Assembly: GCA_029246385.1 (NCBI GenBank)
Contig: JAQWNG010000034.1
Coordinates: 62,001 to 126,000 of the forward strand
Reading direction: 5' to 3'
DNA length: 64,000 nt
From: Halioglobus sp.
Lineage (GTDB): Bacteria > Pseudomonadota > Gammaproteobacteria > Pseudomonadales > Halieaceae
Every line of letters starts with the position of its first letter. Within the stretch, counting starts at the first letter, position 1. The translations under genes were made by a program, and so were the position numbers. Shown here one piece after another: positions 22,544 to 25,196 of this stretch. The notes below the pieces were generated by a model. The model made no database searches, had not been told where the DNA came from, and worked only from the letters and a program-made list of their open reading frames with translations.

Positions 22544-23398
22544 CTAGGCCGGGATGGCGACACGGAGCTTTTTCATCGCACTCTGTTCAAGCTGCCGGAT
22601 GCGCTCCGCAGAAACACCATGCTGCGCTGCCAATTCATGCAAGGTGGCCTTTTTCTCTGCCAACCAGCGCTGCGAAAGTATGTCACGGCTACGTTCATCT
22701 AAATCAGCCAAAGCATGGTGAAGCTGTGCTTCACTATTGTCCTGCCACTCACTAGATTCGAGTAACTGAGCAGGATCTCCACTGTGATCCTCAAGATAAT
22801 ACTGAGGAGCATGCCAACCATCATCATCTGCATCAGCCGGTTGGTCGTAGCCGAGGTCACGACTACTCAAGCGGCCCTCCATACGCTGCACTTCATGCAC
22901 GCCCACGCCCAGATCGTCTGCGATGGCCTGCGCCTCATCCACGCTTAACCAAGACAGCGTTTTTTTGGCACTACGCAGATTAAAAAATAATTTGCGTTGC
23001 GCCTTGGTCGTGGCAACTTTAACAATGCGCCAGTTGCGCAAAATAAATTCGTGCATTTCGGCTTTGATCCAGTGCACCGCAAAAGACACCAAACGAACAC
23101 CTTTCTCGGGGTTGTAGCGCTTGACCGCTTTCATCAGACCAGCATTACCTTCCTGAATCAAATCAGCCTCGGCGAGGCCATAACCGGAATAGCTGCGTGC
23201 AATGTGGACCACAAAGCGTAAATGCGACATCACTAACTCGCGCGCAGCCTGCACATTTTCGTTGTAATATAGATCTTCGCCCAGTTCGCGTTCGCGCTCT
23301 ATACTAAGCACCGGAATACGGCTCACAGCCTGCACATAAGCAGACAAGCTGCCGCCGGGCACCATCTGATCAACCGGTTGTAAACTCTTTTTCATCAT
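22544..23398 (-). CDS. rpoH: RNA polymerase heat-shock sigma factor sigma-32
   Basis: A 284-residue sigma-70-family factor. Region 2 includes VMSHLRFVVHIARSYSGYGL and the core-binding EADLIQEGNAGLMKAVKRYN; the RpoH box reads TTKAQRKLFFNLRSAK, which distinguishes it from other alternative sigmas; region 4 ends with SAERIRQLEQSAMKKLR. It directs transcription of chaperones and proteases. It follows ftsYEX on the same strand, as in many gammaproteobacteria, after a 152-base AT-rich gap. That gap contains a perfect CIRCE element 30 bases before the start codon, suggesting HrcA control in addition to the usual post-transcriptional control. Confidence 0.97.
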   Translation of the reverse strand: MMKKSLQPVDQMVPGGSLSAYVQAVSRIPVLSIERERELGEDLYYNENVQAARELVMSHLRFVVHIARSYSGYGLAEADLIQEGNAGLMKAVKRYNPEKGVRLVSFAVHWIKAEMHEFILRNWRIVKVATTKAQRKLFFNLRSAKKTLSWLSVDEAQAIADDLGVGVHEVQRMEGRLSSRDLGYDQPADADDDGWHAPQYYLEDHSGDPAQLLESSEWQDNSEAQLHHALADLDERSRDILSQRWLAEKKATLHELAAQHGVSAERIRQLEQSAMKKLRVAIPA

Positions 23399-23428
23399 TA
23401 CGTTTCTCGATTAGCTTGAATGATTATT

Positions 23429-23455
23429 TTAGCACTCAATGAGTTAGAGTGCTAA
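23429..23455. promoter_or_regulatory. CIRCE element (HrcA operator) upstream of rpoH
   Basis: TTAGCACTC (23429-23437), a nine-base spacer and GAGTGCTAA (23447-23455) match the canonical TTAGCACTC-N9-GAGTGCTAA in every position. HrcA binds this element and represses at normal temperature. It lies 30 bases upstream of the rpoH ATG, in the likely leader or promoter. The 75 bases beyond it are AT-rich, with a TATAAT at about 23490 on the minus strand, but I cannot fix a single promoter. hrcA itself is not in the window. Confidence 0.92.
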
Positions 23456-23550
23456 TCCTAGAAAAGTTCCATAATATTAAAAAAATACACATTATATTAT
23501 ATTAAATTCAATGAGTTACAGGATAAAGTCTTAACAAGCGCGCGGGCGCT

Positions 23551-24534
23551 CTAGCGCGGCTGAATACGGGCCAAATGACGCGAGACCGCGAGCCAGGCAC
23601 CTGCTAGACCGAGCAAACCGCCTAAAATTACGAGATTTAAGCTACCCATGACCCCGAGCCCACTAAGCTGAAATGCACTCTCATAGAGCGTCGCTAAATT
23701 ACTTATTGGCCTTTCAAGGGACCACAGTGCCGCTGATACCAAGAGAGCGGCCAAGACTCCCCCGCCGACGCCATACCAGAGTCCGGTATACAAAAATGGC
23801 CTTCTCACGAAACCGTTACTTGCACCTACTAACTTGACGATCACAATCTCATCTCGACGGCTTTCAATCGCAAGCCGGATGGTATTGCCCAGAATTAGCA
23901 TGACTCCAATGACCAGCATCCCACCTATCGCCAAGACCAGACGGCGACTGAGCACCATCAGGCTGTTCAGCCGCTGCAGCCACTCCATATCCAATACCGC
24001 CTCCGCCACATCTGAATTGCCCTGCAGTTCGGTACGCAGTGCCGACACTCCGCGTCCGTCTAGGCCGGCATCAGGTGTCACCAAAATTAAATCCGGCAAC
24101 GGGTTTGCCTGCAGGCTAGCCAGTACATCTGCAAACCCAGACAGCGTGCGAAACTCGTCCAAAGCCTCCTCGCGTAAAATAACTCGTGTATCGCTAACGT
24201 CTTGTCTCGCGCTCAACTCAACTTCAATTTCTCGTAATCTGTCGAGGGAGACTTCCCTCTGCAGGAAAAGAGAGATTTGCGCTGGACTATCCCAGCCAGC
24301 ACTCACCTTGTTCACATTGTCCAATGCAACATTCAATCCAACCGGCAGGGCGAGTGCAATACCGATCACCAGCCATGTCAAGAAACTAGCGCCCGGACTG
24401 TCGACCACTCGCATCAGACTATCGGCAGCCGACAGACGGTGATGCCGTATCCAAGCTTTGACATGCCCGCGCAAGTCCGTGCGACTCAAGCTAGCGCCTT
24501 CTTTGCGCCGAACACTGTCGTGCTGGCCCATCAC
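23551..24534 (-). CDS. ftsX: Cell division protein FtsX
   Basis: A 327-residue inner-membrane subunit of the FtsEX complex, which links the Z-ring to septal peptidoglycan hydrolase activation. A cytoplasmic N-terminal tail is followed by a membrane helix (about residues 50-72), a periplasmic domain, and three C-terminal helices with the family segment AIESRRDEIVIVKLVGASNGFVRRPFLY. Its start (GTG 24534, or ATG 24531) overlaps the ftsE stop, indicating translational coupling. Confidence 0.95.
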   Translation of the reverse strand: MMGQHDSVRRKEGASLSRTDLRGHVKAWIRHHRLSAADSLMRVVDSPGASFLTWLVIGIALALPVGLNVALDNVNKVSAGWDSPAQISLFLQREVSLDRLREIEVELSARQDVSDTRVILREEALDEFRTLSGFADVLASLQANPLPDLILVTPDAGLDGRGVSALRTELQGNSDVAEAVLDMEWLQRLNSLMVLSRRLVLAIGGMLVIGVMLILGNTIRLAIESRRDEIVIVKLVGASNGFVRRPFLYTGLWYGVGGGVLAALLVSAALWSLERPISNLATLYESAFQLSGLGVMGSLNLVILGGLLGLAGAWLAVSRHLARIQPR

Positions 24535-25196
24535 TACGCTCCACCGCTGACCAAACGGCCTTGGCTTAACGTAATAATACGGTGACGTAAACGCGAAATC
24601 AGGACCAAGTCATGGCTGGCGATTAAGACGGTAACGCCTACCCGATTAAACGCCTCGAACAGATTCATAATTTCAGCCGACAAAGCCGGATCGAGATTTC
24701 CAGTAGGCTCGTCCGCCAGCAGAATTTTTGGCTTCCCCACCACCGCCCTGGCAATACCCACACGCTGCTGTTCTCCGCCGGACAGCGCAAGGGGCATGGC
24801 TCGTTCCCGGTTCAGCAACCCTACTTTATCTAGGGCGGCACGCACTCGTCGCCCAATCTCTCGAGCATCGTAGCCCGCTATAATCAACGGCAGCGCCACA
24901 TTATCGAATATCGTTCGATCAAACAGCAGCTGATGATTCTGGAACACGACGCCTATGCTGCGACGATGTTGTGGAATGCCGCCGGGGCGAACCGCAGCCA
25001 AATTTTGCTCATTGACGATGACTTGCCCGCGAGTGGGCCTATCCATCAGCATTATCAGGCGCAGCAGTGTACTTTTGCCGGCGCCCGAATGTCCGGTAAG
25101 AAAAACGAGTTCATTCTGGGCTATCTCGATGCTGATTTCCCGCAAAGCGTCATGCCCTCCGTCATAGCGCTTACTAACTCGGTCGAAGCTAATCAT
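24534..25196 (-). CDS. ftsE: Cell division ATP-binding protein FtsE
   Basis: A 220-residue ABC ATPase. Walker A is GHSGAGKST, the signature LSGGEQQRVGIARA, and Walker B ILLADEPTGNLDP. With FtsX it forms a type VII-like ABC complex at the division septum. The gene overlaps ftsY by four bases and ftsX by one, forming a tight ftsYEX unit. Confidence 0.97.
   Translation of the reverse strand: MISFDRVSKRYDGGHDALREISIEIAQNELVFLTGHSGAGKSTLLRLIMLMDRPTRGQVIVNEQNLAAVRPGGIPQHRRSIGVVFQNHQLLFDRTIFDNVALPLIIAGYDAREIGRRVRAALDKVGLLNRERAMPLALSGGEQQRVGIARAVVGKPKILLADEPTGNLDPALSAEIMNLFEAFNRVGVTVLIASHDLVLISRLRHRIITLSQGRLVSGGA

What the first reader, a model, noticed from the sequence alone, without database searches (positions are those of the whole stretch)
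23429..23455. Perfect CIRCE element directly before rpoH
The canonical HrcA operator, TTAGCACTC-N9-GAGTGCTAA, matches in all 18 arm positions and lies 30 bases upstream of the sigma-32 start codon. CIRCE usually sits before groESL or hrcA-grpE-dnaK. Here a chaperone-sensing repressor (HrcA responds to GroEL) would directly control the heat-shock sigma factor, nesting the two main bacterial heat-shock circuits. Whether this has been described for this lineage I cannot say.
Basis: partly seen in the sequence, partly recalled or inferred. Interest (0 to 1): 0.85.

Follow-up and report, generated by a model that had tools for sequence, protein, structure and literature searches.

The report
HrcA operator inside the rpoH promoter
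A switch sequence best known from chaperone operons sits, perfectly preserved, at the promoter of the gene for the master heat-shock sigma factor, here and in many related bacteria, which suggests that two heat-shock circuits usually treated as separate are wired in series.

Summary
A perfect CIRCE (23429-23455, 18 of 18 arm positions) lies 30 bp before rpoH. The genome, close to Haliea/Halioglobus, has one hrcA and one other CIRCE, before groESL. This is no local oddity: in a sample of the class, CIRCE (<=1 mismatch) occurs in 89 of 124 genomes; of the 75 sites listed (34 genomes) 31 precede groES, 30 rpoH, 12 hrcA, 2 unclassified; 30 of 33 fully listed genomes have one before rpoH. CIRCE and hrcA co-occur (83 both, 31 neither, 10 discordant). 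The rpoH site is built unlike the groESL site: a sigma-E -35 (GGAACTT) in register puts a -10 (TCTAA) in the left arm and loop, and right arm plus AAT forms an extended sigma-70 -10. Best reading: GroEL-dependent HrcA represses rpoH by covering both promoters, so GroEL availability gates sigma-32. Binding and repression are inferred. CIRCE before rpoH was predicted for Geobacter sulfurreducens in 2004 (PMC545781); I found no gammaproteobacterial report in the library searched, but the likeliest 2003 survey is not held.

The parts
23429..23455 (.). CIRCE (HrcA operator), perfect 9-9-9 palindrome
   Evidence: CIRCE with <=3 mismatches before rpoH in 52 of 80 RpoH-similar loci; with <=1 mismatch in 30 of 33 fully listed CIRCE-bearing genomes of the class
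23464..23470 (-). predicted sigma-E -35 box GGAACTT
   Evidence: GAACTT with <=1 mismatch in register in 41 of 52 named rpoH sites, control windows 0-4; GAAC in register in 19 of 30 class rpoH sites against 1 of 31 groES sites
23444..23448 (-). predicted sigma-E -10 box TCTAA, made of the end of the CIRCE left arm and the first loop bases
   Evidence: loop begins TAA in 31 of 52 named rpoH sites
23426..23434 (-). predicted extended sigma-70 -10, TGC-TAAAAT, made of the CIRCE right arm plus AAT
   Evidence: 1 promoter-like site found, shuffles 0.5, so weak alone; third base after CIRCE is T in 52 of 52 named rpoH sites and 29 of 30 class rpoH sites, against 3 of 31 groES but also 7 of 12 hrcA sites
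23450..23455 (-). weak sigma-70 -35 (TTAGCA, 18-base spacer), inside the CIRCE left arm
   Evidence: consensus match only, and intrinsic to any CIRCE
22544..23398 (-). rpoH, sigma-32
23551..24534 (-). ftsX, upstream neighbour, same strand; possible read-through into rpoH
   Evidence: no terminator-like site found in 23380-23600
24534..25196 (-). ftsE

Best explanation
The element is a working HrcA operator that controls transcription of rpoH. HrcA, kept active by free GroEL/GroES, binds the 27-bp palindrome and blocks RNA polymerase at two overlapping rpoH promoters: a sigma-E promoter (GGAACTT-N15-TCTAA), whose -10 lies in the left arm and loop, and a sigma-70 extended -10 promoter (TGC-TAAAAT), whose -10 straddles the right arm edge. 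When misfolded proteins occupy GroEL, HrcA loses activity, rpoH is derepressed, and sigma-32 raises groESL and the other chaperones. HrcA also sits on a sigma-70-like promoter of groESL, which has a separate sigma-32-like box downstream, so HrcA, rpoH and groESL form a coherent feed-forward loop (HrcA represses rpoH and groESL; sigma-32 activates groESL). Envelope stress acting through sigma-E would then raise rpoH fully only when HrcA is off. Shown here: the site, its conservation and register, hrcA and rpoE in the genome, co-occurrence with hrcA. Inferred: binding, repression, GroEL sensing in this organism, sigma usage, start sites.
For: Perfect site, unique in the window. One hrcA and one rpoE over the family cut-off (311.6 bits) in the genome; two CIRCE (<=3 mismatches) genome-wide, before rpoH and groESL. 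Each of 18 genus genomes has an exact CIRCE. Named loci: CIRCE (<=3 mismatches) before rpoH in 52 of 80, 40 exact. hrcA in 18 of 18 tested genomes with a site of <=1 mismatch in and near Halieaceae, against 0 of 28 without a site. Order: composite pattern in 63 of 390 genomes, reversed control in 0; hrcA in 53 of these 63 against 43 of the other 327. Class: of 75 sites, 31 groES, 30 rpoH, 12 hrcA, 2 unclassified; CIRCE x hrcA 83/6/4/31. Promoter layers: GAACTT in register in 41 of 52 named rpoH sites, control windows 0-4; class 19 of 30 rpoH against 1 of 31 groES; T at the last -10 position 29 of 30 against 3 of 31 groES; one search finds the same sigma-70 site with TG. sigma-E drives rpoH P3 in E. 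coli (PMC8103513, passages) and binds the rpoH promoter in Vibrio alginolyticus (PMC4890791, passages). GroE enhances HrcA binding in Campylobacter jejuni (PMC8533110, passages).
Against: No binding, transcript or mutant data. The sigma-E -35 is missing in 11 of 52 named rpoH sites and 11 of 30 class ones. The T after CIRCE also occurs in 7 of 12 hrcA sites, so it is not peculiar to rpoH; the promoter scan's single hit is against 0.5 in shuffles and its -35 is poor. Some genomes keep a site without a detected hrcA: L094 and L066 (1 mismatch) and L099 (3 mismatches) of the 50 tested; 10 of 63 pattern-bearing genomes in the order, two of them 99-100% complete (G316, G157; the G157 site is degenerate); 6 of 89 in the class. 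4 class genomes have hrcA but no CIRCE at <=1 mismatch. 43 hrcA-bearing genomes of the order lack the composite pattern; their rpoH was not examined. Genomes are related by descent, so the Fisher values overstate independence.
Confidence: 0.75

Rival explanations
1. HrcA binds and represses only a sigma-70 rpoH promoter; the GGAACTT/TCTAA match is an ancestral leftover or not used, so there is no gating of sigma-E.
For: The T after CIRCE is nearly invariant at rpoH (52 of 52, 29 of 30), whereas the sigma-E -35 is absent in 11 of 52 and 11 of 30.
Against: GAACTT keeps its register in 41 of 52 sites while control windows show 0-4. The loop bases that complete TCTAA are conserved at rpoH (TAA in 31 of 52) and not at groESL. 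A sigma-E-like pattern also precedes rpoH in 9 of 28 relatives without CIRCE, plus L099, with 0 in 115 control blocks over the 29 loci.
Confidence: 0.15
2. The inverted repeat acts mainly as an RNA hairpin in an ftsEX-rpoH read-through transcript, affecting stability or translation near the rpoH start.
For: rpoH follows ftsX on the same strand with no terminator-like site found between; the repeat lies 30 bases before the ATG; the centroid fold of the leader does form the CIRCE hairpin, and the leader folds 2.1 sd better than shuffles (6 of 200 as good).
Against: Arms are conserved in sequence, not merely in pairing (40 of 52 exact). The minimum-energy fold does not form the CIRCE hairpin. Presence tracks the hrcA gene.
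Confidence: 0.05
3. The site is a relic or decoy with no present effect on rpoH.
For: A few genomes carry it without detectable hrcA.
Against: In 18 of 18 tested genomes with hrcA in and near Halieaceae it has <=1 mismatch, and it recurs in 30 of 33 fully listed class genomes. In 28 of 28 tested relatives without a site, hrcA is missing too. In Pseudomaricurvus alcaniphilus, without hrcA, the site has 3 mismatches while GAACTT stays.
Confidence: 0.04

Closest known systems
HrcA/CIRCE control of groESL and hrcA-grpE-dnaK
   Same: Same operator sequence and same repressor family (PF01628); a groESL site is present in this genome too
   Different: Here the target is a sigma factor gene, and the operator is fused to predicted sigma-E and sigma-70 boxes instead of abutting a sigma-70-like -10; hrcA itself has no CIRCE at <=3 mismatches in this genome
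Predicted CIRCE before rpoH in Geobacter sulfurreducens (PMC545781, Table 8)
   Same: Perfect CIRCE at -51 from the rpoH start, inferred from sequence (passages seen)
   Different: A deltaproteobacterium; reported for that one genome of those studied; the passages seen describe no sigma-E or sigma-70 overlap at this site
sigma-E-dependent rpoH P3 promoter of Escherichia coli
   Same: sigma-E transcribes rpoH; RpoE -35 box GGAACTT (PMC8103513, passages)
   Different: HrcA (PF01628) is not among the hits in the E. coli control genome (E. coli is one of the 14 controls); here an HrcA operator covers the predicted -10

Membership tests
CIRCE / HrcA operator | TTAGCACTC-N9-GAGTGCTAA palindrome | tested here: met
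   18 of 18 positions
CIRCE / HrcA operator | hrcA gene in the same genome | tested here: met
   C41:10411-11079, 197.4 bits, cut-off 22.2
CIRCE / HrcA operator | lies in a promoter or leader of a heat-shock gene | tested here: met
   30 bp before rpoH, overlapping promoter-like boxes
CIRCE / HrcA operator | bound by HrcA, represses transcription, relieved by heat | not testable with these tools
   needs EMSA, ChIP, mutant RNA data
sigma-E-dependent rpoH promoter (P3 type) | GGAACTT -35 with a TCTAA/TCTGA/TCAAA-type -10 at about 15-17 bp | tested here: met
   GGAACTT-N15-TCTAA, the only GGAACTT-N14-17-TCTNA match in the window, 0.10 expected, 10 of 100 shuffles have one. GGAACTT and TCAAA from PMC4890791; other -10 variants and spacing recalled
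sigma-E-dependent rpoH promoter (P3 type) | rpoE present | tested here: met
   C27:3940-4488, 311.6 bits against cut-off 236.15
sigma-E-dependent rpoH promoter (P3 type) | transcription depends on sigma-E | not testable with these tools
   needs start-site mapping or in vitro transcription

The most novel reading that the evidence does not exclude
Across hrcA-bearing Gammaproteobacteria the ancestral wiring is HrcA gating sigma-32: a single 50-bp module in which the CIRCE palindrome doubles as the -10 of a sigma-E promoter and of a sigma-70 promoter of rpoH, so that GroEL availability, envelope stress and housekeeping transcription are integrated at one operator. The lineages on which the textbook sigma-32 model rests (E. 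coli and others without hrcA) would then be the derived, simplified case.
Probability: 0.5. Interest if true: 0.78.

Novelty: new variant of a known kind. Interest (0 to 1): 0.64.

Why it matters
HrcA/CIRCE and sigma-32 are usually presented as alternative or parallel heat-shock systems (recalled). Here the repressor would sit directly above the sigma factor, giving a GroEL-sensing input to rpoH transcription next to the DnaK- and translation-level controls known from E. coli (recalled). In the listed part of the class sample rpoH is as frequent a CIRCE neighbour as groES (30 and 31 of 75). The prediction is concrete and cheap to test: EMSA, start-site mapping and an hrcA deletion in an isolate would show whether sigma-32 is set by HrcA in a large part of the Gammaproteobacteria.

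Tried and rejected
Chance match: rejected. RNA hairpin or thermometer: ranked low, not excluded. A clade with rpoH as the only HrcA target: four genomes (G060, G062, G063, G067) show one CIRCE at <=2 mismatches, at rpoH, but GroES was not found in any of the four; strain HTCC2080 (G061) has a groESL CIRCE near a contig end, so assembly gaps are the likelier cause; unresolved. A sigma-E consensus before the genome's own rpoE: the exact pattern was not found, only a looser GAACTA...TCTAT stretch by eye. Literature: ten full-text searches. One search lists 10 papers holding at least three of CIRCE, HrcA, rpoH and 'upstream of rpoH'; I saw passages of all 10, and only PMC545781 places CIRCE before rpoH in what I saw. 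The other listings were not opened except PMC8103513, PMC4890791, PMC8533110 and PMC9866376 (passages). Permina and Gelfand 2003 is not held and RegPrecise could not be read, so an earlier notice there is not excluded.

Full report
OBSERVATION. The window carries TTAGCACTC-AATGAGTTA-GAGTGCTAA at 23429-23455 with no mismatch in the arms. No other site with up to 3 mismatches exists in the 64 kb; shuffled sequence gives 0.01. rpoH is the minus-strand ORF 22544-23398, RpoH by NCBIfam over its cut-off, behind ftsE and ftsX on the same strand. CIRCE ends 30 bases before its ATG.

GENOME CONTEXT. The genome (G000, 3.3 Mb, 45 contigs, 99.99% complete) has exactly two CIRCE sites at <=3 mismatches: this one and C41:33286, which precedes groES. 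One HrcA match is present (C41:10411-11079, 197.4 bits), followed by a GrpE-like ORF (by eye), with no CIRCE of its own. One RpoE over the family cut-off is present (C27:3940-4488), followed by an RseA-like ORF (by eye). The best named RpoH match is a Haliea MAG at 96%, and Haliea, Halioglobus and other Halieaceae dominate the top of that list, so I take the window to be from that family.

CONSERVATION. In the genus, 18 of 18 genomes have at least one exact CIRCE. Of the 12 inexact sites, 8 have the last arm base changed from A to G, which turns TAAAAT into TAGAAT.

DEPENDENCE ON hrcA. 50 of the 80 named-locus genomes were tested for PF01628 (the cap): all 28 without a site, 4 with weak or distant sites, and 18 with a site of <=1 mismatch, most of them titled Halieaceae or a genus of it. 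hrcA was found in 18 of the 18 (two hits partial, G057 and G065), in 1 of the 4 and in 0 of the 28. Against this, Pseudomaricurvus alkylphenolicus and a Cellvibrionaceae MAG keep a 1-mismatch site, and P. alcaniphilus a 3-mismatch site, without detected hrcA; GroES in those three has no CIRCE within 400 bases. I read these as leftovers after loss of hrcA, an inference. In the order, 390 genomes: composite pattern in 63, hrcA in 96; 53 have both, 10 the pattern alone, 43 hrcA alone, 284 neither (hand tally). In the class, 124 genomes: CIRCE (<=1 mismatch) in 89, hrcA in 87; 83 both, 6 CIRCE alone, 4 hrcA alone, 31 neither (hand tally). Relatedness makes the Fisher values too strong, but the association is plain.

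BREADTH. In the order, the composite pattern (GAACTT-N8-TTAGCACTCT-N8-GAGTGCTA, <=3 mismatches) has no reversed-control match in the 390 genomes; some 3-mismatch matches look like groESL sites. From the 45 matching genomes outside the own family I fetched 20 sites, in 15 families; 20 of 20 lie before an RpoH ORF. These were chosen by the pattern. In the class the pattern matches 69 of 369 genomes, the reversed control 1. I fetched every listed place outside G000, 73 regions: 45 lie before RpoH, 22 before GroES, 4 before HrcA, 2 unclassified. To remove the bias of the pattern I searched CIRCE alone in 124 genomes, each same-class genome from its own family. Its list was cut: 75 sites of 34 of the 89 positive genomes were shown, in an order the tool does not explain. 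Of these 75, 31 precede GroES, 30 RpoH, 12 HrcA and 2 were unclassified. In 33 genomes every <=1-mismatch site was examined; 30 have one before rpoH. The exceptions are G481, G555 and G547, whose third site lies at a contig end and is unclassified; G565, partly listed, is left out.

PROMOTER ANATOMY. In the window GGAACTT-N15-TCTAA runs from 23470 to 23444 on the minus strand and is the only such match in 64 kb (0.10 expected). TCTAA is formed by the last bases of the left arm and the first loop bases. In the 52 named rpoH sites, GAACTT with <=1 mismatch lies in register in 41; equally wide control windows further upstream give 0-4. Of the 11 without it, 6 are titled Luminiphilus and 5 Halieaceae. 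In the class sample, not selected for this box, GAAC is in register in 19 of 30 rpoH, 1 of 31 groES and 1 of 12 hrcA sites; control shifts at rpoH give 0-3 of 30. On the other side, the third base after CIRCE is T in 52 of 52 named and 29 of 30 class rpoH sites, against 3 of 31 groES sites, but also 7 of 12 hrcA sites. With the arm it mostly makes TGC-TAAAAT, TGC-TAGAAT or TGC-TAAACT, an extended -10; the promoter scan finds TTAGCA-18-TAAAAT with TG here (one site, 0.5 in shuffles). The fetched groESL sites, mostly of this family, are laid out differently: CTTGAC (<=1 mismatch) at -28 in 19 of 30 and AGAA directly before CIRCE in 16 of 30, and a sigma-32-like TTGAA-N12-17-CCC after CIRCE in 24 of 27 distinct sites. 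In the class, 22 of 31 groES sites have TTGAC at -31 to -25, rpoH 2 of 30. The rpoH operator is thus not a copied groESL promoter.

ORIGIN. A loose sigma-E pattern precedes rpoH in 9 of the 28 loci without CIRCE and in P. alcaniphilus (10 of 29 scanned), against 0 of 115 control blocks further upstream. BD1-7 clade bacterium SB11_3 has GAACTT-N15-TCTAA. This fits a sigma-E promoter that persists when the operator is lost, or one onto which the operator was laid; the data do not fix the direction.

MECHANISM. HrcA should block both promoters because both -10 elements lie in or at the edge of its operator. GroE enhances C. jejuni HrcA binding, and the B. subtilis titration model is cited there (PMC8533110, passages). 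The sigma-E to rpoH link is established in E. coli (PMC8103513, passages) and Vibrio alginolyticus (PMC4890791, passages). Combined, low free GroEL releases rpoH and groESL together, and sigma-32 reinforces groESL: a coherent feed-forward loop. Whether sigma-E input is truly gated depends on the untested sigma-E start.

ALTERNATIVES. An RNA role is less likely: the arms are conserved as sequence and presence tracks hrcA. The fold is not decisive: the minimum-energy structure lacks the hairpin, the centroid has it. A relic is unlikely given the conservation where hrcA is kept. A sigma-70-only operator is the most serious rival.

PRIOR ART. The only statement of CIRCE before rpoH I found is the sequence-based prediction in Geobacter sulfurreducens (PMC545781, passages), after ten full-text searches and passages of all 10 papers that one search lists. 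The 2003 survey of beta-, gamma- and epsilon-proteobacterial heat-shock regulons cited there is not held. I file the finding as a new variant of a known kind, with the reservation that the target may already have been listed for some gammaproteobacteria.

Noticed in passing
L002:1427-1580 (own groESL upstream): groESL has a sigma-70-like TTGACT-16-TAGAAT whose last base is the first of CIRCE, and a sigma-32-like CTTGAAA...CCCCAAT just downstream (by eye); the sigma-32-like box recurs in 24 of 27 distinct fetched groESL sites.
   Followed up: partly
G060, G062, G063, G067 (genomes of L054, L059, L062, L087): Four genomes have hrcA but only one CIRCE (<=2 mismatches), at rpoH, and no GroES was detected; either assembly gaps or an HrcA with rpoH as sole target.
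   Followed up: partly
L094, L066, L099 (before rpoH): CIRCE-like sites with 1, 1 and 3 mismatches before rpoH in genomes without detected hrcA and without CIRCE at groES: possible relics, or another CIRCE-binding protein.
   Followed up: partly
L003:1000-1180 (own hrcA upstream): hrcA carries no CIRCE at <=3 mismatches here, so HrcA is apparently not autoregulated, whereas 12 of 75 class sites lie before hrcA.
   Followed up: partly
L054, L056, L058, L059, L060, L061, L063 (before rpoH): Seven of the 11 named loci without the sigma-E -35 have GGTATTTTTC- or GGTAATTTTT-like sequence in its place, while CIRCE and the following AAT remain.
   Followed up: no
class sample, hrcA sites: T as third base after CIRCE in 7 of 12 hrcA sites: hrcA promoters may share the extended -10 seen at rpoH.
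   Followed up: no
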